A stretch of DNA of 56,592 bases from Frankia sp. AgB32 (GTDB taxonomy: Bacteria > Actinomycetota > Actinomycetes > Frankiales > Frankiaceae): NCBI RefSeq assembly GCF_023243045.1, contig NZ_JALKFX010000037.1:1-56592 (forward strand), in the 5' to 3' direction. Below, piece after piece: positions 1-52,232 of the stretch (position 1 is the stretch's first letter; each line of letters starts with the position of its first letter). Under the pieces are notes generated by a model, which worked only from the letters and a program-made list of their open reading frames with translations, had not been told where the DNA came from and made no database searches. A program made the translations under genes and the position numbers.

Positions 1-43
1 ATGCAGAGCGGGGGAGTGGGCTCGGAGATGTGAATAAGAGACC
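1..43. other. Nextera/Tn5 sequencing-adapter remnant at contig end
   Basis: Bases 16-42 match the Illumina Nextera read-2 adapter plus Tn5 mosaic end at 26 of 27 positions: gggctcggagatgtg at 18-32, one mismatch at 33, then ataagagac at 34-42. This is known library-preparation sequence, not genomic DNA. Bases 1-15 are probably index or adapter too, but do not match a part I can recite exactly. The in-frame reading of the neighbouring subtilase through these bases is therefore artefactual. Confidence 0.85.
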
Positions 44-1753: not shown

Positions 1754-3883
1754 ATGATCGAAACGGGGGATGCCGCGGTGGGGGTACGTCCGGGCACGAT
1801 CGAGCGGATCCGGGGCGCTGACGCCGCCGAACCGGCGGCCGGGATCGAGCGGGTCGCCGTGGCGCGGGCCGCCGTCGCCGAGCTGACCGGGCGCGCCGCC
1901 AGGAGCGAGCTGCCGAGCGCGAAGCTCTGCCGCGATCTCGCCATCGCGCACGAGCGCGCCGGAGATCCGGCCGGAGCCGTCCGGTGGTCCCTCGCCCTCA
2001 CCGACACCGACGCCGACCTCGGCGCCTGGTCGGCGGCCGCCGGGGTGTTGCGGCGCTGCCTGCCGCGGACCGCGGCGCTGCCGCGAGCCGCCCGGGTCGC
2101 CGTCCTCGGCAGCTACACGACCTCCCAGTTCACCGCGCTGCTCCCGCTGGCCGCCGCGCGGGCCGGGGTCGCCGTGGAGACCTACGAGTGCGGCTACGGG
2201 CAGTACCGCCAGGAGATCCTCGACCCGGGCAGCGAGCTCTACCGCTTCGCGCCGGACGTCGTCGTGCTCGCGGTGCACGCGGGCGATGCCGTCCTGCCGG
2301 CGGTCAGTGAACGGCCGGACGCCGCCGTCGCGGCCGAGGTGCACCGCTGGACCTCGCTGTGGGAGACCCTGCGCGCCCGCTGCGGCGCGCGGATCGTGCA
2401 GCACGCGTTCGCCCTGCCCGCCGAGGTAGCGCTCGGCCACCTGGCGCTGCGTACCGCCGGCTCGCGCCCCACCCTGCTCACCCGGGTCAACGCCGAGCTC
2501 GGTCGGGCCGCCGGAGACGGGGTCGCGCTCGTCGACTGCGACCGGCTGGCCGCCGACGTCGGGCGACGAGCCTGGTTCGATCCGCGCTACTGGAACCGCG
2601 CCAAGCAGGCGGTGGCGTTGGACCAGGTGCCGCTGCTTGCCCGGCACACCGCCGCCGTGATCGGTGCCCAGCTCGGGGCCAGCCGCAAGTGCCTCGTCCT
2701 CGACCTCGACAACACCCTGTGGGGCGGGGTGCTCGGGGAGGAGGGCCTCGCCGGGATCGCGCTCGGCGACGGCCCGCTCGGCGAGGCGTTCGCCGCCGTG
2801 CAGGACTACGCGGTGGAGCTGAAGGAACGCGGGGTCGTGCTCGCCGTGTGCTCGAAGAACAACGACGCCGACGCTCGCGAGGCGTTCGAGCGCCATCCCG
2901 GCATGCGCCTGCGGCTCGACGACATCGCCATGTTCAGCGCCTGCTGGGACGACAAGCCGACCCAGCTGCGCCGCATCGCCGCCACGCTCGGTCTCGGTCT
3001 CGACGCCCTCGTCCTCGTCGACGACAACCCGGCGGAGCGCGAGGCCGTCCGCCAGCTCGTCCCCGAGGTCGACGTCATCGCTCTGCCCGCCGACCCGCAC
3101 GGCTACGTCCGCGCGCTGGCCGACTACCCGTTCTTCGAGACGACCGCGCTGACCGCGGAGGACGCGGCCCGCACCGCCACCTACCGGGCCCGCGCGGAGT
3201 TCGCCGCCGCCGAGGCCGCCGCGACGTCGCTGGAGGACTTCCACCGCGGACTGGACATGACGGCGACCGTCGTGGCCCTCGACGAGCTGACGCTGCCGCG
3301 GGTCGCCCAGCTTGTCGGCAAGACCAACCAGTTCAACCTGACCGGCCGCCGCCGCAGCGCGGAGGAGATCGCCCGGCTGGCCGCGGAGTCCGGCACGGCC
3401 GTGCTCTGTCTCCGCCTCGCCGACCGGTTCGCCGACCACGGGCTCGTCGCCGTCGCGATCGGGGTGACCGAGGGTGACGCCCTGGTGGTGGACACCTGGC
3501 TGATGAGCTGCCGGGTCATCGGCCGCACGCTGGAGGACGAGGTCGCCGGACTGCTGCTCGCCGAGGCCCGTCGGCGAGGGCTGGCCCGGGTCACCGGCCA
3601 CCACCGGCCCTCACCGAAGAACGCCCTGGTTGCCGGCCTGTACCCGCGGCTCGGCTTCCATCGCCTGGAGGTACCGGACGACCCTGCCGCGCCGGGAACG
3701 ACCCACTGGGCCCGGTCGGTGGAGGAGCCCTACGCGTCCCCGGGGCTGCTGCGGGTCGTCCTCCCGCCCGTCGACACCCGGGCGGCGACCGCGGGCGGCC
3801 AGCCGGCCGTGCCGAGCGCGCCGTCCCGCCAGATCTTCGCGCAGCCTCGTCCGCAGAGCACACGAGAAGAGGTGTCCAGGTAA
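1754..3883 (+). CDS. FkbH-like HAD-IIIC family protein
   Basis: The 709-residue protein has an N-terminal substrate-binding-like region (about 1-300), a HAD phosphatase core with nucleophile motif DLDNTLWGG at about 317-325 and downstream LVDDNPAER, and a C-terminal acetyltransferase-like domain (about 480-650). FkbH proteins of polyketide pathways dephosphorylate 1,3-bisphosphoglycerate and load the glyceryl group on an acyl carrier protein. Here the ACP gene begins at the base after the stop codon, which strongly supports an ACP-loading role. No polyketide synthase is present, so the acyl group probably ends up on a sugar. The ATG at 1754 is preferred to GTG 1688 because AAGGGG/AGG motifs precede it and the domain homology starts later. 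Pro/Gln-rich residues close the protein. Confidence 0.88.
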   Translation: MIETGDAAVGVRPGTIERIRGADAAEPAAGIERVAVARAAVAELTGRAARSELPSAKLCRDLAIAHERAGDPAGAVRWSLALTDTDADLGAWSAAAGVLRRCLPRTAALPRAARVAVLGSYTTSQFTALLPLAAARAGVAVETYECGYGQYRQEILDPGSELYRFAPDVVVLAVHAGDAVLPAVSERPDAAVAAEVHRWTSLWETLRARCGARIVQHAFALPAEVALGHLALRTAGSRPTLLTRVNAELGRAAGDGVALVDCDRLAADVGRRAWFDPRYWNRAKQAVALDQVPLLARHTAAVIGAQLGASRKCLVLDLDNTLWGGVLGEEGLAGIALGDGPLGEAFAAVQDYAVELKERGVVLAVCSKNNDADAREAFERHPGMRLRLDDIAMFSACWDDKPTQLRRIAATLGLGLDALVLVDDNPAEREAVRQLVPEVDVIALPADPHGYVRALADYPFFETTALTAEDAARTATYRARAEFAAAEAAATSLEDFHRGLDMTATVVALDELTLPRVAQLVGKTNQFNLTGRRRSAEEIARLAAESGTAVLCLRLADRFADHGLVAVAIGVTEGDALVVDTWLMSCRVIGRTLEDEVAGLLLAEARRRGLARVTGHHRPSPKNALVAGLYPRLGFHRLEVPDDPAAPGTTHWARSVEEPYASPGLLRVVLPPVDTRAATAGGQPAVPSAPSRQIFAQPRPQSTREEVSR

Positions 3884-4120
3884 ATGGTCCAGAACCGACT
3901 CCAGCAGATCTTCCGGGAGATCTTCGCTGACGATGATCTCGTCGTCAGCGACGCGATGACCGCAGACGACGTGCCCGGATGGGACTCTCTCGCGCACATC
4001 AACCTGATCTACGCCGTCGAGCGGGAGTTCGCGATCCAGATCGCCGATGACAGGCTTGCCAGCTTCGCCACCGTGGGTGACATGCGCGAACACATCGAGG
4101 AGCTCAGTGGTGTCCACTGA
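3884..4120 (+). CDS. Stand-alone acyl carrier protein
   Basis: This small acidic 78-residue protein has the four-helix ACP shape. The phosphopantetheine site is Ser35 in GWDSLAHINL, followed by helix III (VEREFAIQI) and the closing VGDMREHIEEL helix. It starts immediately after the TAA of the FkbH-like gene and its end overlaps the next gene, so the three are translated together. The family carries acyl or glyceryl groups as thioesters on a 4'-phosphopantetheine arm. In this setting it probably holds the group loaded by the FkbH-like protein and delivers it to the following acyltransferase. Type II PKS or NRPS carrier is a less likely alternative because no such genes are nearby. Confidence 0.93.
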   Translation: MVQNRLQQIFREIFADDDLVVSDAMTADDVPGWDSLAHINLIYAVEREFAIQIADDRLASFATVGDMREHIEELSGVH

Positions 4121-4775
4121 GACCGGCCATGCCCGCAACGGCACCACGCCCGACCACGATCCACGACCCGTGACCACCCCCGTGCCGAACACCTTCGGCG
4201 ACACCCCCGCCGAGGCCGCGACGCACCAGCCGGCCGATCCGCGTGACGCCTCCGAACTGGGCCTGCGCGAGATCCTCAAGGAGGACCTCCGCCGGCACTA
4301 CGGCTCGCTCGCCCACCCTGGCTTCCACGTGCTCGCCGTGTACCGCATCGGCCAGTGGCGGCTGGGCCTGCGCGGCCCGCTGCGCTCCGCGGTGACCGTC
4401 TTCTACAAGGTGGTGAACAACCTCATCATCCGTAACCTGTACGGAGTCGAGCTTTCCGAGCAGGCGCGGATCGGCCGCCGCGTGCACATCGGCCACACCC
4501 AGACGATCCTGATCCCGCCCCACTGCGAGATCGGCGACGACTGCACGCTGCGCCACAACCTGACCATCGGCTACGCCGGCGGCTCGGCGCAGCCCGAGGA
4601 CGTGGCGAAGGTCGGCGCCCGGGTGGAGCTCGCCCCCGGCGTGCACCTCATCGGCCGCATCACGATCGGCGACGACGCGAAGATCGGTCCCGGCTCGATC
4701 GTCATGACCGACGTCCCCCCCGGCTCGACCGTCTTCGCCGCCCCCGCCCGCGTCATGAAGCCTGCCCCCCGCTGA
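4110..4775 (+). CDS. Serine O-acetyltransferase-like hexapeptide (left-handed beta-helix) acyltransferase
   Basis: The 221-residue protein has a disordered N-terminus (1-50), a helical CysE-type segment (LREILKEDLRRHYG), and hexapeptide repeats from about 120 onward (GVELSEQARIGRRVHIGH, CEIGDDCTLRHNLTIG, ITIGDDAKIGPGSIV). These repeats build a left-handed beta-helix trimer that transfers acyl groups, usually acetyl, to hydroxyls or amines. Position after an ACP suggests that the donor may be the acyl-ACP rather than acetyl-CoA; that is inference. Starts GTG 4107 and GTG 4110 are both possible; 4110 gives better spacing from GAGGAG at 4096-4101. The gene overlaps the ACP stop by 11 bases, a sign of translational coupling. 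Confidence 0.85.
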   Translation: MSTETGHARNGTTPDHDPRPVTTPVPNTFGDTPAEAATHQPADPRDASELGLREILKEDLRRHYGSLAHPGFHVLAVYRIGQWRLGLRGPLRSAVTVFYKVVNNLIIRNLYGVELSEQARIGRRVHIGHTQTILIPPHCEIGDDCTLRHNLTIGYAGGSAQPEDVAKVGARVELAPGVHLIGRITIGDDAKIGPGSIVMTDVPPGSTVFAAPARVMKPAPR

Positions 4776-4966
4776 TCACGGAGTTCCGGCAGGATGTTGT
4801 TCCAACAGACCGCCCGACTCCGCGCAATACCCACTCGTAAGGAGAAGCGGGGAGGCGAGTAGGTAGATTGCCTGCCGGTCACGTTTAGTGAGTCTGGGTG
4901 ACGTCGGCAGACAACCCCGATCATGGTGGAGTGTCGGGTGGCATACTCTCAGGCTATGTGGGGGGC

Positions 4967-7900
4967 ATGGCCGTATTCGGTCCGGTTCGTGTCGTGACCG
5001 GTGAGTCGTTGCCGACGCCGCGACGATACCTCGGCGTGATGGTCTCAAGTACCTTCCGGGATCTGCGGGACCATCGTGACGCGGTGATCCAGGCGATCCT
5101 GGGTAATGGGCTGCACCCCATCGCGATGGAGCATGACTCGGCGCTGCCCGATGTCACTGTGGTGGAGTCCTCCTTGCAGAAGGTCCAGGACGCCGCAGCT
5201 TACATCGGCATCGTCGGGTACAGCTACGGGCAGGTTCGCAGTGCCGCCGAAAATCCGCAGGGATGGTCGTTGACGGAGCTGGAGTTCCGGGAGGCGCGCC
5301 GCCTCGGTCGGCCAACACTGATCTTTATCATGAGTGGAAAACACCCGGTGCCGCTGGCCGCGGTGGAGGCGGGCCCGGAGGAATTTGGAAAGCTGGCGCT
5401 GTTCCGCGAGGAGGTCAAGCGCGCGAGCAACGACTCGTCCGTGGAGCGGGTGTACCGGGAGTTCGACAGCCTGCAGGAGTTCAAGGAAGCGGTCATCCAT
5501 TCGGTTGCCGAGCTTCGCCCTCTCCTCGACGCGCGTGCCGCCGAAGAGACTGCCCAGAGGAACTGGGCCGGCCGCGACGAAACGCGCGGTATTCCGACCC
5601 CGCCGGAGCCCTGTGCTGACCCCCCCTACATCGGTGGGCAATGTTTCGTCGGGCGGGCGGACCAGCTGGGAATACTCGGCGACTGGGCCGCGCCGGCAGA
5701 CCACGCCCCGGTGCTGCTGTTCGACGCGATCGGCGGCACCGGAAAAAGCGCGCTGACCTGGGAATGGTTCTCCCATCGCGCCACGGATGTTCGCGGGGAC
5801 TGGGCGGGGCGGTTCTGGTACTCCTTCTACGAGAAGGGGGCGGTGATGACCGATTTCTGCCGCCGGGCCCTGGCCTACATCACTGGCCGGCCGCTGGACG
5901 ACTTCGCGAAGGTGAAACAGGCCGACCTCACCGACCAGCTGCTCTGGCAGCTCCGGCGCCGCCCATGGCTGTTGGTCCTTGATGGCCTCGAACGTGTTCT
6001 CGTCGCTTACCACCGCCACGATGCGGCCCAGCTCAGCGACGAGGAGGTTGGCACCAGAGACATCATCGCCGCCCGTGACCCTCGAGCGGCGATCCGTCCC
6101 CTCGATGAGGAACTGCTGCGCAGGCTCGCGGCTGCCGGGCCGTCGAAAATCCTGATCACCTCGCGGTTGGTGCCGCAGGCGCTGCTCGGCCCCGCCGGCC
6201 GGCCGATCCCCGGCGTGCGCTGCGAGACGTTGCCCGGCCTCCAGCCGGTCGACGCGGAAGCCCTGCTGCGGTCGTACGACGTCGACGGCGACTCGGGCAC
6301 CATCCGCGGCTATCTGCACCGGCACTGTGACTGCCACCCACTCGTGACGGGCGTCATCGCCGGCCTGGTCCTGAACTATCCACGCGCGCACGGCCAGTTC
6401 GACCGGTGGGCTGCGGACCCCGCCTACGGCGGCGGCCTCGACATCGGCGGCCTCAATCTCGTCGGCAAGCGCAACCACATCCTGCACGCGGCCATCGACG
6501 CGCTCCCCGAGCCGGATCGACGACTGCTGTCCATGCTCGCCCTGCTGTCCGAGGCAACGGACTACGACACCATCGAGGCGCTCAACCCCCACCTGCCCGC
6601 CGAACCCGACTCCGTCCCCGCGCCGGAAGAACCAGAGGACGATCCTGGCTGGGCGGACATGGCAGCGGGGGATCGCGTCGCCGCGCGTGCGGGGTACGAG
6701 ATTCAGGCAAGGGCACACCATGCGTACCTGGAGGCCCGCCGTGCGTGGGAGCGATCTGTGGATCGGGCCTCGGCAGCACAGCGACTTGATGACACGGTGG
6801 GGGAACTGGAGAAGAGGGGTCTGCTGCAGATAGATCGGCGCAACAGTCGGTATGACCTGCACCCGGTCGTGCGTTCTGTCGCCGCCGGGCTTCCCACCGG
6901 CGACCGTGACCTCCTCGGCCAGCGGGTTATCGACCATTTCTCGTCCCGGCCCCAGAACCCCTACACGGCCGCCGAAACCATCGACGATCTACGGAACCCC
7001 CTGACCGTCATCCGCACCCTCCTACGCCTGGGCCGGTTTCCCGAAGCATCCCTTGCCTACACGGGTGAATTCGCGGATGCCCTCTTCGGCGGGCTGGAGG
7101 CGTACGCTGAGATGCTCGCCCTGCTGCGCCCCTTCTTTACCCACGACTGGACCACTCCGTCCCCCGAGCTGGACGCGAATCACCAGAGCCGGCTGGTCAA
7201 CGACGCTGGTCTCGCGCTCGGTAACCTCGGGGAGCACGGTACCGCGCTCGCCGCCAAAGGTGCAGGGCTGAAGATCGACCTCACCGAGCGGAATTGGAGA
7301 TATGCACGTGTTGGGCTTAGCAACTGCGCGGGGGAACTTGCTCACCAGAATCATCTCGCCTCTGCTGGACGCCTCCGCGTTCTCGCTCTTGGACTAGCTG
7401 AACACATCGGTGGCGGTGATTCGTTCTACCCGCGACTGGACATGTGTGACGCGTATGTAGTTTCTGGGCGGATGGATGACGCCGAACGGACGTGGGCAGA
7501 GTTCAGTCTGAAATTCCGAGACTTGTCCGAGCGGTCTGTACAAGCCGGGGCCGCCGTTTTTTCGCATGCCTGCTACCTGTTCGAGCGAGGTACTCTCACC
7601 GGCGAGGACCTGAGCCAAGCGGTGGGGATCGCAGCGGCCCGCGGTGCTCGTAGATATCTCCGTGGGCTGCAGCTGCTTCGCGGCTGGTGGTTGGTGGATC
7701 GGGGCCAGTGGGCGGACGCGGCAGACAGTCTCGAGACGGCCGTGCGCATGGCTCGCGAGGTTGAGGTCACCGATGCTGAGGCCGAAACCCTGCTCGCCCT
7801 GGCCCGCCACCACCTCGGCCGGCTGGCCGACCCCCGTACCGAAGCCGAGCGTCTTGCCGCGCTGCGCGAGCCGGCGCACCTGCACCTCGCGCATCTCTGG

Positions 7901-8155
7901 CAGGCCATCGGCGACACCGAACAAGCGATCTGCCAAGCCCGCGCCGCCTATCGATATGCCTGGGCGGACGGCGAGCCGCACGTCCGCCGCCACGACCTGA
8001 ACCGGGCCACGGCGCTGCTGCACTCCCTCGGCGTCGAGATCCCCCGCCTTCCCGCCTACGACCCGGCAACCGACCCACCTCCCGACTGGGAGGAACACGC
8101 CACAGCACTTGTCCACGACCTGCTTCGCAGCGAAGACGCACAGTCCGAATCGTGA
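4967..8155 (+). CDS. DUF4062 - STAND NTPase with TPR-like C-terminus, probable defence protein
   Basis: The 1062-residue protein begins with a DUF4062 domain (about 18-115; RYLGVMVSSTFRDLRDHRD and YIGIVGYSYG are typical). A STAND-class NTPase follows, with P-loop GGTGKS at 256-261, Walker B WLLVLDGLERV ending near residue 343, and the LITSR sensor motif near 395. A winged-helix-like stretch (QIDRRNSRYDLHPVV) leads into Ala/Leu-rich helical repeats resembling TPRs (about 640-1000). DUF4062-STAND proteins occur among bacterial antiviral and signalling NTPases, where the repeats sense a trigger and the N-terminal domain acts. It sits alone between sugar genes, with more A/T-ending codons than its neighbours, suggesting insertion. 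GTG 4898 and GTG 4958 are alternative starts; ATG 4967 follows GGGGG. Confidence 0.82.
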   Translation: MAVFGPVRVVTGESLPTPRRYLGVMVSSTFRDLRDHRDAVIQAILGNGLHPIAMEHDSALPDVTVVESSLQKVQDAAAYIGIVGYSYGQVRSAAENPQGWSLTELEFREARRLGRPTLIFIMSGKHPVPLAAVEAGPEEFGKLALFREEVKRASNDSSVERVYREFDSLQEFKEAVIHSVAELRPLLDARAAEETAQRNWAGRDETRGIPTPPEPCADPPYIGGQCFVGRADQLGILGDWAAPADHAPVLLFDAIGGTGKSALTWEWFSHRATDVRGDWAGRFWYSFYEKGAVMTDFCRRALAYITGRPLDDFAKVKQADLTDQLLWQLRRRPWLLVLDGLERVLVAYHRHDAAQLSDEEVGTRDIIAARDPRAAIRPLDEELLRRLAAAGPSKILITSRLVPQALLGPAGRPIPGVRCETLPGLQPVDAEALLRSYDVDGDSGTIRGYLHRHCDCHPLVTGVIAGLVLNYPRAHGQFDRWAADPAYGGGLDIGGLNLVGKRNHILHAAIDALPEPDRRLLSMLALLSEATDYDTIEALNPHLPAEPDSVPAPEEPEDDPGWADMAAGDRVAARAGYEIQARAHHAYLEARRAWERSVDRASAAQRLDDTVGELEKRGLLQIDRRNSRYDLHPVVRSVAAGLPTGDRDLLGQRVIDHFSSRPQNPYTAAETIDDLRNPLTVIRTLLRLGRFPEASLAYTGEFADALFGGLEAYAEMLALLRPFFTHDWTTPSPELDANHQSRLVNDAGLALGNLGEHGTALAAKGAGLKIDLTERNWRYARVGLSNCAGELAHQNHLASAGRLRVLALGLAEHIGGGDSFYPRLDMCDAYVVSGRMDDAERTWAEFSLKFRDLSERSVQAGAAVFSHACYLFERGTLTGEDLSQAVGIAAARGARRYLRGLQLLRGWWLVDRGQWADAADSLETAVRMAREVEVTDAEAETLLALARHHLGRLADPRTEAERLAALREPAHLHLAHLWQAIGDTEQAICQARAAYRYAWADGEPHVRRHDLNRATALLHSLGVEIPRLPAYDPATDPPPDWEEHATALVHDLLRSEDAQSES

Positions 8156-8396: not shown

Positions 8397-9425
8397 ATGA
8401 AGGTGCTCGTGACCGGCACGGAGGGGTACCTGGGGTGCCTGCTCGCGCCGGAGCTGATGCGTGATGGCCATGAGGTCATCGGTGTCGACACCGGCTACTA
8501 CAAGTACGGCTGGCTCTACCGGGGGACGGACCGCACCGCGCAGACCCTCGACAAGGACCTGCGCCACCTCACGGTCGAGGACCTCGCCGGAGTCGACGCC
8601 GTCGTGCACATGGCCGAGCTGTCCAACGACCCGCTCGGCGCGCTCGCCCCGGACGTCACCTACAAGGTCAACCACCTCGGCTCGGTGCGGCTGGCGAACC
8701 TCGCCAAGCAGGCCGGCGTCCAGCGGTTCGTCTACATGTCGTCGTGCAGCGTCTACGGCGTGGCGACCGGCGAGGACGTCACCGAGACGTCCCCGGTCGA
8801 CCCGCAGACCCCGTACGCCGAGTGCAAGGTGTACGTCGAGCGGGACGTCGCGCCGCTGGCCGACGACTCGTTCTCGCCGACCTTCCTGCGCAACGCCACC
8901 GCCTACGGCGCGTCCCCGCGGCAGCGGTTCGACATCGTGCTCAACAACCTCGCCGGGGTCGCCTGGACCACCGGCGAGATCGCGATGACCTCGGACGGCA
9001 CGCCGTGGCGCCCGCTGGTGCACGGCCTCGACATCGCCAAGGCGATCCGGCTGGCGCTGGCCGCGCCGCGCGACGTCATCCACAACCAGATCTTCAACGT
9101 GGGCGACAGCGAGCAGAACTACCAGGTGAAGGAGATCGCCGACGCCGTCGCGTCGGTGTTCACCGGCTGCAAGCTGAGCTTCGGCGACAACGGCGGCGAC
9201 AACCGCAGCTACCGGGTGAACTTCGACAAGATCGCCAGCACGCTGCCCGGGTTCTCCTGCGACTGGAACGCGCTGCGCGGCGCCCAGCAGCTGCACGAGG
9301 TGTTCACCGCTATCCAGCTCGACGCGGAGACCTTCACCGGCCGCGGCCACACCCGCCTCAAGCAGCTTGAGTACCTGATCGGCACCCACCAGCTCGACGC
9401 CGACCTGTTCTGGACCACTCCGTGA
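8397..9425 (+). CDS. NAD-dependent nucleotide-sugar epimerase/dehydratase (extended SDR)
   Basis: The 342-residue protein has the Rossmann motif VTGTEGYLG at residues 5-13 and the catalytic pair Tyr140 and Lys144 in TPYAECKVY, with an upstream SSCSVYG serine motif. It is an extended short-chain dehydrogenase of the type that epimerises, dehydrates or reduces NDP-sugars. It is followed with a four-base overlap by an RmlC-like 3,5-epimerase and then a C-methyltransferase, so it likely works on a 4-keto-6-deoxyhexose linked to CDP or dTDP. The exact reaction (4-ketoreductase, 4,6-dehydratase or epimerase) cannot be told from sequence alone. The ATG at 8397 follows GGGGAGG at 8382-8388; the longer reading frame upstream lacks family similarity. 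Confidence 0.87.
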
Positions 9426-10003
9426 TCATCGCGCCGACGGCGATCGCCGGGGTGTGGACCGTCGACGCCGAGCCGTTCGCCGACGAGCGCGGGCTGTTCG
9501 CCCGGATGTTCTGCGCCGAGGAGTTCGCCGCCGCCGGTCTCACCGTCGAGGTCGCCCAGTGCAGCGTCGCGTACAACGCGCACGCCGGCACGATCCGCGG
9601 CATGCACTGGGCGGCCGAGCCGGTCCGCGAGACCAAGCTGGTCCGCTGCACCCGCGGCGCGCTGCTCGACGTGATCGTCGACCCGCGCCCGGACTCGCCC
9701 AGCTACCTGCGCCACGTCGCGGTCGAACTGACCGCGGACAACCACCGGGCGCTGTTCATCGACGCCGGCCTCGCGCACGGATACCAGACGCTGGTCGACG
9801 CCACCGAGGCGACGTACCAGATGAACGTCCCCTTCACCCCGGGACACGACCGTGGGCTGCGGTTCGACGACCCGCGTCTCGCGATTGCCTGGCCGCTGCC
9901 GGTCTCGGTCGTCTCCGCCAAGGACCGGGCCTGGGAGCTCCTCCCGCCCGAGCCGGCCGGCGTCGGGTCCGCGCCGGCGGGCGTCGCCGGCGCGGGCGCC
10001 TGA
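9422..10003 (+). CDS. dTDP-4-dehydrorhamnose 3,5-epimerase family protein (RmlC-like)
   Basis: This 193-residue cupin matches the RmlC family from beginning to end: [10 protein letters not shown] near residue 21, the catalytic His in TIRGMHWA (about residue 62), [18 protein letters not shown], and GLAHGYQTL. Classical RmlC inverts C3 and C5 of dTDP-4-keto-6-deoxyglucose, whereas relatives act on one carbon only or on CDP-sugars. Its GTG start overlaps the preceding epimerase gene by four bases, so the two are surely co-translated. The C-terminal 20 residues are an Ala/Gly/Pro-rich tail not needed for the fold. No rmlA, rmlB or rmlD is present here, which argues against ordinary rhamnose synthesis. 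Confidence 0.88.
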
Positions 10004-10311: not shown

Positions 10312-11619
10312 ATGTCATCCGGAACCCGGGCCGAGGGCGGCGCAGCCGCCGCGAACCAGCAGCCGGCCGCCGCCGGCGGGATCGCCACGCCCGTCACCTC
10401 CTGCCGGTCCTGCGCGGGGCCGGCCCCGCGGCTGTTCCTCTCGCTGGGGTCCACGCCGATCGCGAACCGCCTGGTCCGCGCCGACGCCCTCGACGCCACC
10501 GACCCGTCGTTCCCGCTCGAGGTCGGGTTCTGCGAGTCCTGCGCGCTGGTGCAGCTCACCCACGAGCTGCCGGCCTCGGAGATCTTCGACGAGGACTACC
10601 CGTACTTCTCCTCGTTCTCCGACATGCTCGTCCGGCACTCCGAGAAGCACGTCATCGACCTGATCGCCAGCCGCGACCTCGGCCCGGACAGCCTCGTCGT
10701 CGAGGTGGCCAGCAACGACGGCTACCTGCTCAAGGCGTTCGTCGAGCGCGGCATCCCGGTGCTCGGCATCGAGCCGACGCCGGGTCCGGCCGCCGCCGCC
10801 CGCGAGGCCGGTGTGCCCACCCGCGAGGAGTTCTTCGGCGCGGACCTCGCCCGCCAGCTTGTCGCCGAGGGCCTGAAGGCGGACGTGATCATCGCGAACA
10901 ACGTGATGGCGCACGTGCCCGACCTCAACAGCTTCGTCGAGGGCTTCTCGATCCTGCTCAAGGAGGACGGGCTGGTCGACGTGGAGAACCCCGGCGTCGG
11001 CGCGCTGCTGGCCCACACCGAGTTCGACACCGTCTACCACGAGCACTTCTGCTACTTCTCCACGATCGCCGTGGAGGCGCTGATGCGCCGCAACGGCCTC
11101 GCGGTCGTCGGCGTCCAGGAGTTCGCCGACCTGCACGGCGGGACGCTGCGCTGGAGCATGGGGCACGCCGGCACCGCCGAGCCGGCCGAGTCGGTCGCGG
11201 CCCAGCTCGGCGCCGCGCGCGAGGCGGGCCTGGACTCCTTCGACCGGTACGCGAGTTTCGGTGACGCCGTCCGCACGGTCCAGGACGAGCTGGTCGAGCT
11301 GCTGCGCGGGCTGCGGGCCGAGGGGAGGACGGTCGCCGCCTACGGCGCGGCGGCCAAGGGCGCGACGTTGCTGAACTCCAGCGGCATCACGACCGACCTC
11401 CTCGACTTCGTGGTCGACCGCAACATCCACAAGCAGGGCCGCTACGTCCCCGGGGCGCGCCTGCCGATCCTCGACCCGGCCGTGCTGCTGGAGCGTCAGC
11501 CCGACTACCTGCTGTTGTTGGCGTGGAACGTGAAAAAGGAGATCATCGCCCAGCAGGGCGAATACGCCGCCCGCGGTGGCCGGTTCATCGTGCCGGTACC
11601 CCGCCCGGTTGTGCTTTAG
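10312..11619 (+). CDS. NDP-sugar C-methyltransferase (TylCIII/EvaC-like, class I SAM)
   Basis: The 435-residue protein has the three-part build of sugar C-methyltransferases. An N-terminal zinc-binding region has CRSC (about residues 27-30) and CESC (about 73-76). A central SAM-binding domain has VVEVASNDGYLLKAF and VIIANNVMAHVPDL, with the typical DTVYHEHFCYFS segment. A C-terminal Rossmann-like domain carries AYGAAAKGATLLN. The family adds a methyl to C3 of a 4-keto-deoxysugar, giving branched sugars such as mycarose or virenose precursors. With the epimerase and RmlC-like genes just upstream it suggests a 3-C-methyl-6-deoxyhexose in the polymer. AAGGGGA precedes the ATG at 10312; ATG 10285 is an in-frame alternative. 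Confidence 0.9.
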   Translation: MSSGTRAEGGAAAANQQPAAAGGIATPVTSCRSCAGPAPRLFLSLGSTPIANRLVRADALDATDPSFPLEVGFCESCALVQLTHELPASEIFDEDYPYFSSFSDMLVRHSEKHVIDLIASRDLGPDSLVVEVASNDGYLLKAFVERGIPVLGIEPTPGPAAAAREAGVPTREEFFGADLARQLVAEGLKADVIIANNVMAHVPDLNSFVEGFSILLKEDGLVDVENPGVGALLAHTEFDTVYHEHFCYFSTIAVEALMRRNGLAVVGVQEFADLHGGTLRWSMGHAGTAEPAESVAAQLGAAREAGLDSFDRYASFGDAVRTVQDELVELLRGLRAEGRTVAAYGAAAKGATLLNSSGITTDLLDFVVDRNIHKQGRYVPGARLPILDPAVLLERQPDYLLLLAWNVKKEIIAQQGEYAARGGRFIVPVPRPVVL

Positions 11620-15268: not shown

Positions 15269-15503
15269 CTGCCATCGCTGCGCCAGTCATAGCTATGACC
15301 GTTTACTTTCCGCTATCGGCTATGCTCGCAAATCGGTTCGTCAGATCTAGACCGTGGATCCGGCAATCGCGCCGGATGCTCCTGTGGGGGGCTACATTGA
15401 GTCCGCTTCACGTCCTGTTGGAGGTGCCGGTGCGTCGTTCCGCCGGATCTCCTATCCGTGTGCGGGCCGGGTCCGCCTGGTCCGAAGCCGGGACGGAGGC
15501 GTC
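15269..15503. promoter_or_regulatory. Promoter region of Wzz-like gene with 14-bp perfect palindrome
   Basis: This gap is markedly A/T-richer than its surroundings. It contains the perfect palindrome GTCATAGCTATGAC at 15286-15299, followed by a run with little G/C (gtttactttccgctatcg) that could hold a promoter. The Wzz-like gene starts at 15504. The palindrome is the most striking operator candidate in the window. Confidence 0.55.
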
Positions 15504-17063
15504 ATGAGCCGCACATCACAGCCCGCCGGCGAGACGAGCCGGGCACCGTCCGCGCCCTCGCTGCTGCGCATCCTGCAGCCGCGCCTGCTGATCATCGTCA
15601 TCGTCGTGGTGATCTTCGCAGCGCTCGCGGCGATCTACTCGAAAGCCCAGTCGGCGACCTACACCGCCAGCGCCCGGGTCTTCCTGTCGACGGACTCCCA
15701 GATAATCGGCGGGTCCACGGTCGACGTGACGCGTTACGTCCAGACGCAGGCGCAGTTCGCGCAGTCCTCGGCGGCCGTCGCCGACATTGCCAAGAACCTG
15801 AAGCTGACGGACGGCGAGGTCACGGACCGGCTCACCGTCACGCCGTCGGACTCGGGCTACTACTTCGTCGTCAAGGGCAAGGGGTCGACCCAGGACGCGG
15901 CCATCTCGCTGGTCAAGGCGGCCGAGTCGTCCTACAGCACGCTGCTGACGAGCTATGGCGCCAACAGTCAGGCGTCGGTGGACGCGCTGACCAAGCTGCG
16001 TGACCAGCTGGTGGCCCAGAACGCCACGACTCAGACGGCTGGCGGAGCGAACGACGTCACGGTCCGAAACGCCCAGATCACCGATCTGAACAATCGGATC
16101 GCCACGGCACAGACCGCAGTGGTGCTCGGCAGCGCCGCGATCAAGCTGGCCGAGCCGCCGGTCGCCGGCGGCCAGTCGGGGCCGGTCCTGCTGCGCAACA
16201 CGCTCGTCGCGGCGCTGGTGGGTCTGCTCGGGTCGATCGCCGCTATCTGGATCATGTACCAGCGGCGGCCGACGATTCTCGACCCGCACAACCCGTCCGA
16301 CGCGCTCGGCGTTCCGCTGATCGCCGCGCTGGAGCCGGGCCGCACGACCGCGAGCGCGGCCGAGACCCTCGTCTCGGCGATGTCGGCGGTGATGTCGCCG
16401 ACCAGCAAGGTCGTGGCGTTCACCCCGGCGTCGCGCGGTGACCTCTCCCCGGACCTCGTCGCCTCGGTCGCCGCCGCCTGGTCGGACGACCAGGGTGTGG
16501 TCCTGATCCTCGACACGTCCCCGTCGTCGGAGGTGCGGGCCTCGCTGGAGGGGCTGCCCCGGCCGACCTCAGGGGAGCTGCCCCGCTGGGCGCACGAGCC
16601 GACCTGCCTGGCCCGCTCGTCGGGCACCGGGCGCGGGCACATCCTCTACAACCGGGTGTCGCCGGCGCGGGCCGCCCGTCCGGGCGGTCTCGCCCCGATC
16701 CTCGCCGACCGCGCGCCCGTCGTCGACCTGGTCATCCTGGTCACCTCGGCGCTCGCCGAACTGCCGATGACCGCTGCCTCGGCCATCCAGGCCGACGCCG
16801 TCGTCGTCATCACCTCCTCCGAGACGCACCTCAAGGAGTTGGAGCAGGTGCCGCGGGACTGGCCGGCGCTCGCCGAGCGGGTCGTCGGCGTCGTCCACGA
16901 CGGGCGCACCGGCATCCGTCGGGCCGTCGGCACCACCCCGGAGCGGCGCTCCTCGGTGGAGCCGATCACGTCGAGCTCCACGGTCGGTGACAACGGAGCC
17001 CCGCCCAAGCGCGGCGGCGCCGACGCGGAACCCACCGACCGCTACGCCCGCCCGGCCCGCTAG
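15504..17063 (+). CDS. Wzz-like polysaccharide co-polymerase with degenerate BY-kinase domain
   Basis: The 519-residue protein has two transmembrane helices (about 29-47, LLIIVIVVVIFAALAAIYS; about 232-252, VAALVGLLGSIAAIWIMY) bracketing an extracytoplasmic domain with coiled-coil propensity, the classic Wzz topology that governs chain length and export. The cytoplasmic part resembles a bacterial tyrosine kinase (BY-kinase) fold, but the Walker A lysine motif is lost: the stretch VVAFTPASRGDLSPDLVAS replaces GxGKT/S, and VVLILDTSPSSE stands where Walker A' normally reads LLIDADxR. A kinase-dead regulator is inferred. The C-terminus is disordered and lacks a Tyr cluster. Start ATG 15504 follows GGACGGAGG. 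Confidence 0.85.
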   Translation: MSRTSQPAGETSRAPSAPSLLRILQPRLLIIVIVVVIFAALAAIYSKAQSATYTASARVFLSTDSQIIGGSTVDVTRYVQTQAQFAQSSAAVADIAKNLKLTDGEVTDRLTVTPSDSGYYFVVKGKGSTQDAAISLVKAAESSYSTLLTSYGANSQASVDALTKLRDQLVAQNATTQTAGGANDVTVRNAQITDLNNRIATAQTAVVLGSAAIKLAEPPVAGGQSGPVLLRNTLVAALVGLLGSIAAIWIMYQRRPTILDPHNPSDALGVPLIAALEPGRTTASAAETLVSAMSAVMSPTSKVVAFTPASRGDLSPDLVASVAAAWSDDQGVVLILDTSPSSEVRASLEGLPRPTSGELPRWAHEPTCLARSSGTGRGHILYNRVSPARAARPGGLAPILADRAPVVDLVILVTSALAELPMTAASAIQADAVVVITSSETHLKELEQVPRDWPALAERVVGVVHDGRTGIRRAVGTTPERRSSVEPITSSSTVGDNGAPPKRGGADAEPTDRYARPAR

Positions 17064-17884: not shown

Positions 17885-19240
17885 TCAGACGGCCGCGAAG
17901 GAACCGCGCTGCACGGAGGAGGAGCCGGCCGACGGTGCCGGCCGGAGATCGCTGGCTGCCTCGCGTTCGTCCTGGGGGGTCACCGTGAACCAGGCGACGA
18001 GCAGCAGCCCGAGTCCCGTGACGACCGGCGCCAACAGGCCGCCGGACAGCACAGTGTAGAAGATCAACACCGACCCGGACAGCACGAACGACTGCGAGCC
18101 GCGGACGAACATCGTCACGATGAACGCGAGGAACATGATGGTGCCCAGAACGCCGTACTCAAGGACGAGTTTCGGCACCAGGGCGTAGTTCAGCGGCAGG
18201 CCGGTGCGCTGGAAGAAGGCGCTCGCGTCCCGGTCGGCGTAGCCGGGGCCGTTGCCGAACACGACCGTGGCCGGATCCTTGCCGAGCGAGTCCCAGGTCC
18301 GCTGGTAGGGCTGGACGAACCGCAGGCTGCCGCTCGAGGTCGACGAGGACGTCTCCGTCGCGCGGGCGGCGAAGATGCTCGACGCCGGGGTGAAGCTGAT
18401 GACCAGCGCGATGAGGCTGACCCCGAGCAGCGCGGTCAGCGCGAACCGGGCGCCCTTGTGCACCGCCAGCAGCACGCCCGCGAAGGCCAGCAGCAGCAGG
18501 CCGGTGCCGGAGACGGTGGAGAGGATGGCCAGCACGAACATCGGCAGCCGCCACCAGCTCCCGCCGCGCAGCACGCAGACCACGATCCCGAAGCCAAGGA
18601 ACTGCGAGCAGAACGAGGCCTCGAGGCAGACGAAGCCGTTCGACTTGAAGATCGACGACCCGTACTGGACCGGATAGGAGGTGTTGAACCCGTGCATCAG
18701 CAGGTTCGACGGGACGATGTCCTTCACGACGTCCGTGTACGGCACGCCCACGAGCTGGCTGCCGAACTGGAACAGCGCGAGCCCGGCCAGCACCGTGATC
18801 ATGATGAGGAAGCGGTCGAGTATCCGGGGGAGCAGGGCGCGGGCGTCCGCGGGCCGCAGGCCGTAGAGGAACGGGACGTACGTCGCCAGCAACAGCAGCA
18901 GCGAGGTGATGGACGTGTCGTCGTTCTGCCGCAGGAACGCCGTGAGCGCGGACAGGGCGCAGGCCGTCATCGCCACGAAGTAGCCGGTGGTCCGGCCGGA
19001 GTTCCGCGACAGGCCGCCGCGCCACAGCATGATCGCCAGGCAGACGTAGGTGATCGGCAGGATGATCTGGACCTGGGAGCCACCGGCCGGCAGCGCGATC
19101 CGCTGCAGGAAGATCTCGCAGAACATCAGGATGGTCAGCACGCGCAGGGTGGCGTCGTTGGCCGTGCGGCCGCTTTCCGCTTCCTGGGTCGGGATCACCC
19201 ACGACCGCGGAATCCTGGTCGTGAGGGTGGTGGTGACCAC
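17885..19240 (-). CDS. Wzy-like O-antigen polymerase/ligase membrane protein
   Basis: The 451-residue product has about 10-12 hydrophobic helices and, between them, a large extracytoplasmic loop (TATETSSSTSS-like region up to GNGPGYADRDASAFF), which is the usual look of Wzy polymerases and WaaL ligases. These proteins show little conservation, so assignment rests on topology and on the context with Wzx- and Wzz-like genes. It would link flipped repeat units in the outer leaflet of the membrane. The start is uncertain: GTG 19240 follows a purine-rich GGGGGACGGG, while a GTG-type start at 19342 would add 34 residues without membrane features. Both ends of the protein are hydrophilic. Confidence 0.8.
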   Translation of the reverse strand: MVTTTLTTRIPRSWVIPTQEAESGRTANDATLRVLTILMFCEIFLQRIALPAGGSQVQIILPITYVCLAIMLWRGGLSRNSGRTTGYFVAMTACALSALTAFLRQNDDTSITSLLLLLATYVPFLYGLRPADARALLPRILDRFLIMITVLAGLALFQFGSQLVGVPYTDVVKDIVPSNLLMHGFNTSYPVQYGSSIFKSNGFVCLEASFCSQFLGFGIVVCVLRGGSWWRLPMFVLAILSTVSGTGLLLLAFAGVLLAVHKGARFALTALLGVSLIALVISFTPASSIFAARATETSSSTSSGSLRFVQPYQRTWDSLGKDPATVVFGNGPGYADRDASAFFQRTGLPLNYALVPKLVLEYGVLGTIMFLAFIVTMFVRGSQSFVLSGSVLIFYTVLSGGLLAPVVTGLGLLLVAWFTVTPQDEREAASDLRPAPSAGSSSVQRGSFAAV

Positions 19241-19576
19241 TGGTATCCCGTCCCCCGTTCCTGGCTGGCGGGTGCGGGCGGCGCGGCTCGCCGCCTGAGG
19301 CGGAGTGGCGGACTGGTGCAATCCGGCTCCCCGGGACCGCAAGGGCGGTCCGGCGCGTCGCGTGCGATCGCACCGCGGACGATTCTAACGGCGCCTCCGG
19401 GCGCGTCGGCACCCAGCCCGGCGAGCGCCGTGCTAACCACGGCCCGCGAGGCGAGTGGCGGCGGAAGGTAGCCGCGTGTTGTCGCTGCGCGTGCCCTCCG
19501 TGCAAGACGGACCGGTCGGTGAATAATTGCGCTGCGTGTGTGGTCGCCGGTCCGCCAGGTCTGTGGAGGTGTCATT
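19241..19576. promoter_or_regulatory. Divergent promoter region of wzy-like and GH26-like genes
   Basis: No gene is seen in these 336 bases. On the minus strand, TAGAAT (RC of 19382-19387) could serve as a -10 box for the polymerase gene. On the plus strand, aataat at 19522-19527 after the palindrome GACCGGTC is a -10-like candidate for the hydrolase gene. Matching -35 boxes are not evident. Confidence 0.35.
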
Positions 19577-20854: not shown

Positions 20855-21622
20855 TCAGTAGGACTTCTTCGCCGGCCGGAGGTGGAGTTCGGTGATCTCC
20901 GCGCTGGGCGGCAGGCCGATGAGGTAGGCGACGAGGTCGGCCACGTCGGTGGGCTGCACGAGCAGGGACGGTGTGTACTGGCGGCCCTCCCGCGCGTAGA
21001 TCGTTTCCTGGCGGGGGGTCGCCGTGCGGCCGAGGTGGATCGTCGTGACCCGCACGCCGTCGGCGTTGATCTCCTGGCGGAGACTGTCGGCGAAGGCCCG
21101 CATGGCGTGCTGGGTGGCGGCGAACTGGCTGGTGCCGGCGCCCGCGCGGATGCCCTGGGTCGAGTTGACGACGATGATGTCCGCTCCGGTGTCCGCGCCG
21201 GCGACCCGCAGCGCGGGCAGCAGGCGCTGGGTCAGGGCGTAGGGGGCACGCACGTTCGCCGCGTACTGGGCGTCCAGGTCGGCGAGCGTGGCGGCGTCCA
21301 CCCGGGCGCTGGTGTAGGCCCCGGCGCTGTGCACCAGGTGGTCGACCCGGCCGTGCTGCGCGGTGATGTCGGCGACGAGCTCGCCGACGGCGCTGTCGTC
21401 GGTGAGGTCGAGGCGGACCGGCAGCAGCGTGCCGGGGCCGGCACTCTCCTTGCCCAGGCTGTCGAGCCGCTCCTGGTCGCGGCCGATGGCGAGCACGGTG
21501 GCGCCGTCGGCGGCCAGGCGCAGCGCGGTGGCCCGGCCGATGCCGCTGGAGGCGCCCGTCACGACGGCGACGTGGCCGGCGAGCGGCACGCCGTCCGCAG
21601 TGACGGCCGGGGGCGCCGTCAT
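20855..21622 (-). CDS. Short-chain dehydrogenase/reductase with altered catalytic Tyr and Lys
   Basis: The 255-residue protein is a classical SDR with the cofactor motif VVTGASSGIGRATA (about 20-33) and HSAGAY in place of NNAG. The catalytic serine region is retained (VVNSTQGIRAG), but the expected YxxxK reads F-A-A-T-Q in SQFAATQHAM: TTC and CAG codons replace Tyr and Lys. This would abolish normal oxidoreductase chemistry unless other residues stand in. It is the last gene of a four-gene minus-strand operon; its ATG overlaps the stop of the PhyH-like gene (ATGA). SDR plus IspD-like pairs are known in ribitol-phosphate pathways (TarJ/TarI analogues), which is one possible reading. Confidence 0.88.
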   Translation of the reverse strand: MTAPPAVTADGVPLAGHVAVVTGASSGIGRATALRLAADGATVLAIGRDQERLDSLGKESAGPGTLLPVRLDLTDDSAVGELVADITAQHGRVDHLVHSAGAYTSARVDAATLADLDAQYAANVRAPYALTQRLLPALRVAGADTGADIIVVNSTQGIRAGAGTSQFAATQHAMRAFADSLRQEINADGVRVTTIHLGRTATPRQETIYAREGRQYTPSLLVQPTDVADLVAYLIGLPPSAEITELHLRPAKKSY

Positions 21623-52131: not shown

Positions 52132-52194
52132 CGTGTCCGCCCTTGTGGTCACCGCGACGGGGTGCCGCGTGCTGGGGATCGCCAACCTCAGTAC

Positions 52195-52232
52195 CACTAC
52201 TCTAAGGAGTGAAGGAGGCACATTAAGTAGTG
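52195..52232. promoter_or_regulatory. Inverted repeat in divergent promoter region
   Basis: CACTACT (52195-52201) and AGTAGTG (52226-52232) flank a purine-rich, comparatively A/T-rich stretch with an inner ACTC/GAGT symmetry. It lies between the MBOAT gene (minus) and the hydrolase gene (plus) and may bind a regulator. Confidence 0.4.

What the first reader, a model, noticed from the sequence alone, without database searches (positions are those of the whole stretch)
1754..4775. FkbH-ACP-acyltransferase cassette in a polysaccharide locus with no polyketide synthase
FkbH proteins are known for loading glyceryl units on ACPs for polyketide extender units. Here the ACP is followed by a beta-helix acyltransferase, with tight coupling (0-base gap and 11-base overlap). 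The plausible role is ACP-dependent glycerylation or acylation of a surface glycan, which is not a standard pathway.
Basis: partly seen in the sequence, partly recalled or inferred. Interest (0 to 1): 0.78.

Follow-up and report, generated by a model that had tools for sequence, protein, structure and literature searches.

The report
Portable three-gene acyl-carrier cassette in Frankia
Three adjacent genes in the soil bacterium Frankia look like a self-contained kit that loads a small three-carbon acid onto a carrier protein and hands it to a sugar-modifying enzyme, borrowing a tool known mainly from antibiotic assembly lines; the chemistry itself has not yet been tested.

Summary
In detail: FkbH (1754-3883), a discrete ACP (3884-4120) and a beta-helix acyltransferase, AT (4110-4775), are translationally coupled at the edge of a surface-polysaccharide locus with no PKS marker in the 56.6-kb window. 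It is more than chance: 27 distinct trio loci (Frankiaceae, Nitrospira, one acidobacterial MAG) in several gene orders; in 35 Frankiaceae genomes trio-type FkbH and AT are both present in 24, both absent in 11, never split. None of the 27 has a ketosynthase, KAS-III or E2 gene in the flank held; 15 of 20 other Frankiaceae FkbH loci do (tetronate-type). In Parafrankia and most Pseudofrankia the trio stands away from a syntenic polysaccharide locus that lacks it, so it is portable, not an obligate part of that locus. The AT is not a serine acetyltransferase; distant relatives sit beside an ACP and an AMP ligase instead of FkbH. Best reading: FkbH charges the ACP with a glyceryl-type group and the AT acylates a sugar of a surface glycan (confidence 0.5). 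Donor, acyl group and acceptor are inferred. A new variant of a known kind; interest 0.55.

The parts
1754..3883 (+). FkbH-like protein, 709 aa: helical N-terminus (27-105), FkbH_N alpha/beta domain, HAD domain with DLDNT (D317, D319), GNAT-fold C-terminus with invariant S585-C586-R587
   Evidence: TIGR01686 263.8 bits, PF21211 48.9 bits; model pLDDT 86.6; Foldseek 3slr (BF1531) E 1.7e-29, GNATs next; invariant residues
3884..4120 (+). discrete acyl carrier protein, 78 aa, GWDSL phosphopantetheine serine
   Evidence: PF00550 23.7 bits; best solved relative 2lml, E 4.3e-12; WDS in 27 of 27 trio loci
4110..4775 (+). left-handed-beta-helix acyltransferase of the glycan/WcaB-like side of the CysE superfamily, 221 aa; lacks the CysE RHP motif and the Asp of the CysE Asp-His pair
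   Evidence: PF00132 47.5 bits; EpsC 88.3, CysE 81.4 and WcaB 70.4 bits, all below cut-off; residues; tree
4898..8155 (+). DUF4062 / NTPase-type protein between AT and epimerase; present at this place in 2 of 11 Frankia loci (window, L028): an insertion, not part of the cassette
   Evidence: PF13271 64.6 bits; no PADLOC match
8397..9425 (+). NAD-dependent sugar epimerase/dehydratase
   Evidence: PF01370 E 4.2e-45
9422..10003 (+). RmlC-like sugar 3,5-epimerase
   Evidence: PF00908 E 7.1e-55
10387..11619 (+). sugar C-methyltransferase
   Evidence: PF08421, PF13489, PF08484
11714..15268 (+). multi-pass membrane protein, flippase-like (label provisional), with a long repetitive Pro/Gln-rich N-terminus
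   Evidence: synteny and hydrophobic segments; no Pfam or PDB support; 27-base repeat
15354..17063 (+). Wzz-type chain-length protein
   Evidence: PF02706 33.8 bits against 25.5
17885..19342 (-). Wzy-like polymerase/ligase (label provisional)
   Evidence: 9 hydrophobic segments; PF04932 Wzy_C in 6 of 11 family members scanned, not in this one
20855..21622 (-). short-chain dehydrogenase
   Evidence: PF00106 E 6.5e-39
21619..22551 (-). PhyH-type dioxygenase
   Evidence: PF05721 22.1 bits against 22
22508..23317 (-). IspD-family cytidylyltransferase
   Evidence: PF01128 E 2.4e-30
23310..24656 (-). DUF4910/DUF2172 aminopeptidase-like polysaccharide-locus protein
   Evidence: PF16254 351.3 bits; PDB 3k9t E 1.4e-121; PF16254 in 30 of 35 Frankiaceae, 6 of them without the trio
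24703..25551 (-). glucose-1-phosphate cytidylyltransferase-like
   Evidence: TIGR02623 277.3 bits, just under its cut-off 300.25

Best explanation
The trio is a self-contained, portable acyl-transfer module. Step 1 (inferred from family chemistry): FkbH takes a three-carbon acyl group, most likely D-glyceryl from 1,3-bisphosphoglycerate, removes the phosphate with its HAD domain and loads the acyl on the phosphopantetheine of the ACP encoded next to it. Step 2 (inferred): the beta-helix AT takes the group from the ACP and puts it on a hydroxyl or amino group of a sugar nucleotide or lipid-linked sugar of a surface glycan. The logic is that of the Dlt system (charging enzyme, carrier protein, transferase) with FkbH as the charger. 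Shown here: the genes, their coupling, the co-inheritance of FkbH and AT, the lack of a polyketide partner in the flanks held, and the intact motifs. Not shown: loading, the nature of the acyl group, donor use by the AT, the acceptor.
For: Co-occurrence: trio-type FkbH (60-100% identity by segment) and trio-type AT (55-100%; other AT homologues in these genomes are at 40% or less) are both present in 24 and both absent in 11 of 35 Frankiaceae, none discordant; within one genus (g243) 5 of 8 have both and 3 neither (for the figures). Coupling survives reordering: F-C-A 18, A-F-C 7, C-A-F 1, C-A divergent from F 1, of 27 distinct loci, with 4-base overlaps AT-FkbH in L023, L026, L027 and L030. 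No KS, KAS-III or E2 in 27 of 27, within the flanks held. In the FkbH tree the 26 AT-linked rows (window and L001 are the same sequence) sit in one starred clade of 29 rows with L033, L035 and L036, apart from the tetronate clade (99/96). DLDNT and Ser-Cys-Arg are intact and WDS is in 27 of 27 ACPs. Glycan links recur at different sites: upstream of the epimerase in Frankia; between Wzz and Wzy in L024; in Nitrospira L030 with an ABC-transporter ATPase and a glycosyltransferase. In MAG G445 the FkbH-ACP pair has no AT in the 6.8 kb held (L033), while one of its two ATs lies with C-methyltransferase, IspD, RmlC, epimerase and PhyH homologues on another contig (L130). Four plasmid loci have GT61-AT-AMP ligase-ACP-PLP enzyme: distant relatives of this AT beside an ACP and another charger.
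Against: Ten of 27 trio loci have no strong glycan marker near (weak AsnB-like or ABC hits in L025 and L098); 9 of these were scanned by Pfam (74 of 77 neighbour ORFs), and the 25 of 61 families shown hold no glycosyltransferase or ketosynthase, but do hold AMP-binding enzymes (3 ORFs), SDR (4), WS/DGAT acyltransferases (2) and AidB-type acyl-CoA dehydrogenases (2), so other partners for the ACP are not excluded. The polysaccharide locus does not need the trio: flippase-like and DUF4910 genes are present in 30 of 35 genomes, 6 of them without the trio. Relatives of the AT in glycan loci can lack an ACP beside them (L127, L160), and WcaB (35-39% identity) is by recall an acetyl-CoA enzyme, so ACP use is not required by the fold. 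In the AT tree the Frankiaceae and the Nitrospira/acidobacterial FkbH-linked ATs are not one clade (2 changes), so the pairing may have arisen twice or been lost. In L027 a MaoC-SDR gene lies between FkbH and ACP. The putative catalytic His is Asn in L031. The AT model is poor (pLDDT 63.8; no Foldseek hit with E under 0.001). Nothing in sequence fixes glyceryl against lactyl or another acyl group.
Confidence: 0.5

Rival explanations
1. The AT is an ordinary acetyl-CoA-dependent sugar O-acetyltransferase (WcaB/EpsC-like); FkbH-ACP make a glyceryl group for another acceptor, and the three are neighbours because they decorate the same molecule.
For: Nearest described relatives are acetyltransferases: WcaB at 35-39% identity, CysE/EpsC profiles. 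Two related ATs in annotated glycan loci have no ACP beside them.
Against: Trio-type AT is never found without trio-type FkbH in 35 Frankiaceae. In stand-alone loci no transferase family recurs widely (WS/DGAT in 2 of 74 neighbour ORFs; only 25 of 61 families seen). Relatives of the AT are tied to an ACP with another charger.
Confidence: 0.22
2. The trio feeds a polyketide or peptide pathway encoded elsewhere: glyceryl-ACP is delivered in trans to one of the genome's PKSs.
For: The genome has 45 ketoacyl-synthase matches; FkbH is best known from PKS extender units and tetronates (PMC7489565, PMC3625739, passages read). One trio locus (L099) has a weak NRPS-type hit, 41 bits, 8.9 kb away.
Against: 0 of 27 trio loci have KS, KAS-III or E2 in the flank held; 15 of 20 class-B FkbH loci in the same family do. 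14 of the 24 genomes with the trio carry a class-B FkbH too, so the PKS job has its own FkbH there (not in this genome). Separate clades.
Confidence: 0.13
3. The AT O-acetylates the glyceryl group while it is on the ACP (CysE-like chemistry on a serine analogue), giving an acetylglyceryl- or, after elimination, enolpyruvyl-type ACP that another enzyme uses.
For: Glycerate differs from serine only at C2, and CysE acetylates the C3 hydroxyl (family knowledge); in tetronate operons an acetyltransferase is proposed to act on the glyceryl-derived hydroxyl (PMC7489565, passages read).
Against: The CysE substrate motif (RHP) and the Asp of the Asp-His pair are missing in the 11 FkbH-linked ATs displayed; no eliminating enzyme was seen to recur in the stand-alone loci (25 of 61 families).
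Confidence: 0.08

Closest known systems
FkbH/ACP glyceryl loading in methoxymalonyl and tetronate pathways (Tmn16, AbyA2/AbyA3, Mad7/Mad8, Mad14/Mad12)
   Same: FkbH family with intact HAD motif, next to a discrete ACP; glyceryl transfer from 1,3-bisphosphoglycerate to ACPs is reported in vitro for Tmn16 (as told in PMC3625739, passages read).
   Different: No KAS-III, E2 or PKS partner within the flanks held; separate FkbH clade; a beta-helix acyltransferase belongs to the set.
D-alanylation (Dlt) system
   Same: Charging enzyme, small carrier protein, transferase that acylates a cell-surface polymer (logic only; Dlt roles recalled).
   Different: FkbH instead of DltA; soluble beta-helix AT instead of the membrane MBOAT DltB. 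A DltB-like MBOAT lies 46 kb away in the window (50470-52221), unlinked.
WfpD (ACP) and WfpG (PglD-like acyltransferase) of Flavobacterium psychrophilum O-polysaccharide
   Same: O-antigen-specific ACP predicted to hand its acyl group to an acyltransferase that modifies a sugar nucleotide (PMC6519341, passages read).
   Different: Acyl group predicted to be built by FAS-like enzymes, not FkbH; PglD-like transferase.
Campylobacter jejuni flagellin dimethylglyceroyl-pseudaminic acid
   Same: Glyceroyl-type group on a surface sugar. Strain 12664 has cj1302 (fkbH domain) as a pseudogene and lacks the modification; strain 12661 lacks it too and misses cj1301 (PMC7099621, passages read; the link is mine and a correlation only). 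Cj1295, associated with the modification, belongs to an aminopeptidase-like family said to include Frankia proteins (PMC3068675, passages read); that the window's DUF4910 protein is of that family was not tested.
   Different: Different sugar; whether an AT of the trio type is there was not examined. In Frankiaceae the DUF4910 gene does not follow the trio.
Exosortase-A-type ligase/ACP/PLP sets in EPS loci (Paracoccus, Neorhizobium plasmids)
   Same: Distant relative of the AT beside an ACP and its charger in a glycan setting.
   Different: Charger is an AMP ligase (TIGR03098 about 504 bits in the two scanned, L128 and L161, under its cut-off of 592); ACP not found by the trio ACP profile.

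Membership tests
FkbH-like glyceryl transferase/phosphatase | TIGR01686 above curated cut-off | tested here: met
   263.8 bits against 146.65
FkbH-like glyceryl transferase/phosphatase | HAD catalytic DxD motif, Lys and DD pair | tested here: met
   D317, D319, K401, D423, D424 invariant in A4, 20 rows
FkbH-like glyceryl transferase/phosphatase | conserved Cys of the Ser-Cys-Arg motif (acyl-holding role is my guess) | tested here: met
   Cys in all 74 rows aligned; C586 here
FkbH-like glyceryl transferase/phosphatase | loads glyceryl from 1,3-bisphosphoglycerate on the ACP | not testable with these tools
   needs in vitro loading and mass spectrometry
Discrete acyl carrier protein | PP-binding domain and phosphopantetheine serine | tested here: met
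   23.7 bits against 20.8; WDS in 27 of 27
Fatty-acid-synthesis ACP | acyl carrier protein equivalog models above cut-off | tested here: not met
   best 41 bits against 92
Serine O-acetyltransferase (CysE/EpsC) | curated model above cut-off | tested here: not met
   EpsC 88.3 against 150; CysE 81.4 against 210.65
Serine O-acetyltransferase (CysE/EpsC) | Arg-His-Pro substrate motif and Asp-His pair | tested here: not met
   RHP absent, Asp replaced by Gly in the window AT; apart from the CysE-side rows in the tree
WcaB colanic acid acetyltransferase | TIGR04016 above cut-off | tested here: not met
   70.4 against 194.65
Tetronate glycerate-utilisation operon | KAS-III, E2-type acyltransferase and PKS next to FkbH-ACP | tested here: not met
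   none in the window, none in 27 trio loci within the flanks held
Methoxymalonyl-ACP operon | two dehydrogenases and an O-methyltransferase with FkbH-ACP | tested here: inconclusive
   the genes downstream of the trio read by Pfam are none of these; no scan with FkbG/I/K models; two AidB-type acyl-CoA dehydrogenases among 74 neighbours of stand-alone trios
Dlt system | DltA-type ligase with DltC and DltB in one operon | tested here: not met
   no such set at the trio; only a DltB-like MBOAT 46 kb away
Wzx/Wzy-dependent polysaccharide locus (host locus) | Wzx, Wzy and Wzz with sugar-nucleotide genes and glycosyltransferases | tested here: inconclusive
   Wzz and sugar genes met; Wzy_C in 6 of 11 family members; Wzx unsupported; GT1 and two GT2 genes upstream in L015, outside this window

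The most novel reading that the evidence does not exclude
FkbH-ACP-AT is a transferable Dlt-like cassette that diverts a glycolytic acyl phosphate into surface-glycan acylation: a dedicated glyceroyl-transfer pathway with no polyketide synthase, whose charger (FkbH or AMP ligase) and transferase (beta-helix AT, MBOAT, WcbI type) are swapped between lineages while a carrier protein stays. It would supply candidate enzymes for glyceroyl groups on bacterial glycans whose genes are unassigned.
Probability: 0.4. Interest if true: 0.72.

Novelty: new variant of a known kind. Interest (0 to 1): 0.55.

Why it matters
Glyceroyl-type groups occur on bacterial glycans, and for the Tannerella forsythia glycan the candidate gene 'remains elusive' (PMC6120980, passages read). 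A compact trio that keeps its partners when it moves gives a minimal set to test in vitro. It would also show that FkbH, read mainly as a polyketide marker, can mark a glycan-modifying module, which matters for cluster-mining tools that take an FkbH as a PKS clue.

Tried and rejected
Rejected: (1) 'Trio bound to the polysaccharide locus': in Parafrankia and most Pseudofrankia it lies elsewhere. (2) 'Trio presence predicts the flippase or DUF4910': both are also in 6 genomes without the trio, although all 24 trio genomes have DUF4910 (Fisher p 0.0014, not corrected for kinship). (3) 'AT is a second CysE': motifs and tree say no, and the genome has another CysE-side gene at C77:36240. (4) 'The trio is a stray PKS piece': no PKS partner in the flanks held. 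(5) The DUF4062/NTPase gene as part of the cassette: absent between AT and epimerase in 9 of 11 Frankia loci. (6) That gene as a known defence gene: no PADLOC match.

Led nowhere: the AT model was too poor to read. Profile searches of the flippase-like and Wzy-like proteins against the PDB found nothing. In the held papers no description of FkbH-ACP charging in a glycan pathway turned up (searches; those of 33 and 92 list only the first 25 and 12 of thousands of papers); most subscription papers are not held, so this is weak evidence of novelty.

Rows dropped: trio table, 13 duplicate loci left out, 27 left (the trio of G419 was not fetched); FkbH tree, 74 of 85 rows, the rest on a skip list of re-fetched or overlapping loci; AT tree, 64 rows after such a list; neighbour Pfam scan, 74 of 77 ORFs, three short ones left out, from 9 of 10 stand-alone loci (L021 not), and the gene caller skipped ORFs with N or under 270 bases; class-B loci, 20 fetched of 22 places. 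Plasmid FkbH hits: 7 of 59 records opened: 2 with MBOAT, 1 with a WcbI-type gene, 1 with pseB/NeuB-type sugar genes, 1 PKS (tetronate-like), 1 with neither, 1 unannotated. Plasmid AT hits: 10 of 48 records opened. In one search five of 73 FkbH rows were not confirmed for the DxDNT pattern (L069, L076, L081, L086, L091, all PKS-labelled) and L070 had no full hit; none is in the trio clade.


Full report
WHAT IS THERE. The window is one contig stretch of a 6.68-Mb genome whose nearest named relatives in the FkbH search are Frankia. FkbH (1754-3883) is followed without a gap by an ACP (3884-4120), whose last 11 bases overlap the GTG start of an acyltransferase, AT (4110-4775). Family models confirm all three: FkbH domain 263.8 bits against 146.65; PP-binding 23.7 against 20.8; hexapeptide repeats 47.5 against 27. 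The predicted FkbH structure is good (pLDDT 86.6): helices 27-105, an alpha/beta domain, a HAD domain and a C-terminal GNAT fold; the first half matches BF1531 (3slr, E 1.7e-29). The best solved relative of the ACP is 2lml (E 4.3e-12); by recall this is a Geobacter ACP proposed for lipopolysaccharide synthesis, a paper that is not held.

THE HOST LOCUS. Downstream come an inserted DUF4062/NTPase gene, a sugar epimerase, an RmlC-like epimerase, a C-methyltransferase, a flippase-like membrane protein, Wzz and, on the other strand, a Wzy-like protein, SDR, PhyH, IspD-like, DUF4910 and glucose-1-phosphate cytidylyltransferase-like genes. In L015 one GT1 and two GT2 genes lie upstream. The flippase label is provisional; Wzy_C is found in 6 of 11 family members but not in the window's own. 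No KS, KAS-III, E2 or NRPS marker hits the window, though the genome has 45 ketoacyl-synthase matches.

THE TRIO IS A UNIT. After removal of duplicates there are 27 distinct trio loci: 18 in order F-C-A, 7 in A-F-C (in L027 with a MaoC-SDR gene before the ACP), 1 in C-A-F, and 1 with C-A divergent from F; the ACP has WDS in 27 of 27. They come from Frankia (12), Parafrankia (7), Pseudofrankia-type genomes (5), two Nitrospira MAGs and one acidobacterial MAG. In 35 Frankiaceae genomes trio-type FkbH and trio-type AT are both present in 24 and both absent in 11, with no split case (the chance figure of 2.4e-9 ignores kinship; within g243 alone, 5 against 3, it is 0.018). The ACP was checked only in the loci fetched. 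FkbH is rare beyond: 13 of 396 Actinomycetota genomes.

IT DOES NOT LOOK LIKE A POLYKETIDE PIECE. None of the 27 loci has KS, KAS-III or E2 in the flank held; one has a weak NRPS-type AMP-binding hit (41 bits, 8.9 kb off, L099), AMP-binding genes lie some kilobases from other Pseudofrankia trios (L023, L026), and some contigs are short (L014, L031, and one side of L017 and L020). A second FkbH class in the same family (34-38% identity; 20 of 22 places fetched) has at least one of KS, KAS-III or E2 in 15 of 20; many look like tetronate operons, as reported for Frankia alni (PMC3625739, passages read). 14 of the 24 trio genomes carry both classes; this genome has only the trio FkbH. In the FkbH tree (74 rows) the 26 AT-linked rows lie in a starred clade of 29 rows (96/83) with L033, L035 and L036, and 23 class-B and related rows form another (99/96). 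PKS-labelled rows also occur outside the second clade (L036, L061 and four near the root), so FkbH clades do not map one-to-one on function. L036 (Streptomyces) is on a long branch and has KS-like hits near.

IT IS PORTABLE. In 11 of 11 Frankia loci with enough flank the trio lies just upstream of epimerase-RmlC-C-methyltransferase, twice with the DUF4062 gene between (window, L028). In 7 of the 10 Parafrankia and Pseudofrankia genomes with a stand-alone trio I fetched the syntenic polysaccharide locus (L096, L097, L108, L109, L110, L114, L115): it has no trio, which lies elsewhere. L024 has it between Wzz and Wzy of that locus. Of 27 loci 15 have a glycan marker near (in L027 only an ABC-transporter ATPase, in L102 only a broken flippase-like gene), 10 have no strong one and 2 are on contigs too short to say. 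For 9 stand-alone loci, 74 of 77 neighbour ORFs scanned against Pfam gave SDR, PLP enzymes, flavin reductases, AMP-binding, WS/DGAT, AidB-type dehydrogenases, regulators and the like; 25 of 61 families are shown, none a glycosyltransferase or ketosynthase. Flippase-like and DUF4910 genes are in 30 of 35 genomes, 6 without the trio: the polysaccharide locus does not need the trio.

WHAT THE AT IS. It scores below the cut-offs of CysE, EpsC and WcaB. Against serine acetyltransferases it keeps the His of the active site but lacks the preceding Asp and the Arg-His-Pro motif (roles of these residues recalled). In the AT tree (64 rows) the 24 Frankiaceae trio ATs form one clade (98/96), the Nitrospira and acidobacterial ATs group with glycan-locus ATs without a detected ACP (86/92, not starred), and 27 CysE-side rows, including this genome's own second copy, lie apart. 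Four plasmid loci (L128, L161, L162, L164) have GT61-AT-AMP ligase-ACP-PLP enzyme; for L128 and L161 the records are annotated so, for the other two it rests on my marker search. In the MAG G445 one of two ATs lies with C-methyltransferase, IspD, RmlC, epimerase and PhyH homologues (L130), the FkbH-ACP pair on another contig (L033). Together these favour an acyl-ACP donor and a sugar acceptor but prove neither. L031 has Asn for the His, so that His may not be needed in all.

MECHANISM. FkbH charging of an ACP with glyceryl from 1,3-bisphosphoglycerate is reported in vitro for Tmn16 (as told in PMC3625739). The trio FkbH keeps the HAD residues and an invariant Cys. Stand-alone loci suggest that the three genes suffice. 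I therefore think that FkbH charges, the ACP carries and the AT transfers, like Dlt in logic. Precedents: WfpD/WfpG in F. psychrophilum (predicted, PMC6519341) and the Campylobacter dimethylglyceroyl sugar with the fkbH-domain gene cj1302 in its locus (PMC7099621, PMC3068675; correlation only, drawn by me). For Tannerella the glyceroyl gene is unassigned (PMC6120980). All these papers were seen as passages, not read whole.

BROADER PATTERN. FkbH also sits beside MBOAT (L116, L117, L037, L038), WcbI type (L119) and MaoC-SDR genes (L027, L034, L036, L039) (MBOAT of L037 and MaoC-SDR of L027 confirmed by Pfam, that of L038, L034, L036 and L039 by my markers only). Most of this rests on single loci.

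VERDICT. A real, conserved and portable module; its chemistry is untested. New variant of a known kind.

Noticed in passing
window 1-45: The first bases read, on the minus strand, like a transposase-adapter remnant (SLIHISEPT in one frame; recognition recalled), i.e. probable assembly contamination at the contig edge.
   Followed up: partly
window about 60-1230, minus strand: Open frame with subtilisin-type serine protease motifs (DGGVD, GHGT, GTSNSAA) runs off the contig start; read by eye, no family search.
   Followed up: no
window 4898-8155: DUF4062/NTPase-type gene inserted between AT and epimerase in 2 of 11 Frankia loci (window, L028); no PADLOC match.
   Followed up: partly
window 12104-12405: 27-base tandem repeat, about 11 copies, in the long Pro/Gln-rich N-terminus of the flippase-like protein.
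   Followed up: partly
window 50470-52221, minus strand: DltB-like MBOAT (158 bits, under the DltB cut-off 375), the only MBOAT match in the genome.
   Followed up: partly
window 19538-20845 and 26671-29583: Two GH26-like proteins flank the polysaccharide genes; the first keeps its place beside the Wzy-like gene in relatives.
   Followed up: no
L102 3306-8722: Second trio in a Parafrankia genome, order C-A-F, next to a flippase-like gene and an SDR gene that each match in two frames; the FkbH match is listed with two TGA inside although its frame is open over 5891-7786.
   Followed up: partly
L076-L095: Tetronate-type FkbH operons are common in Frankiaceae: 15 of 20 loci have KS, KAS-III or E2 nearby.
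   Followed up: partly
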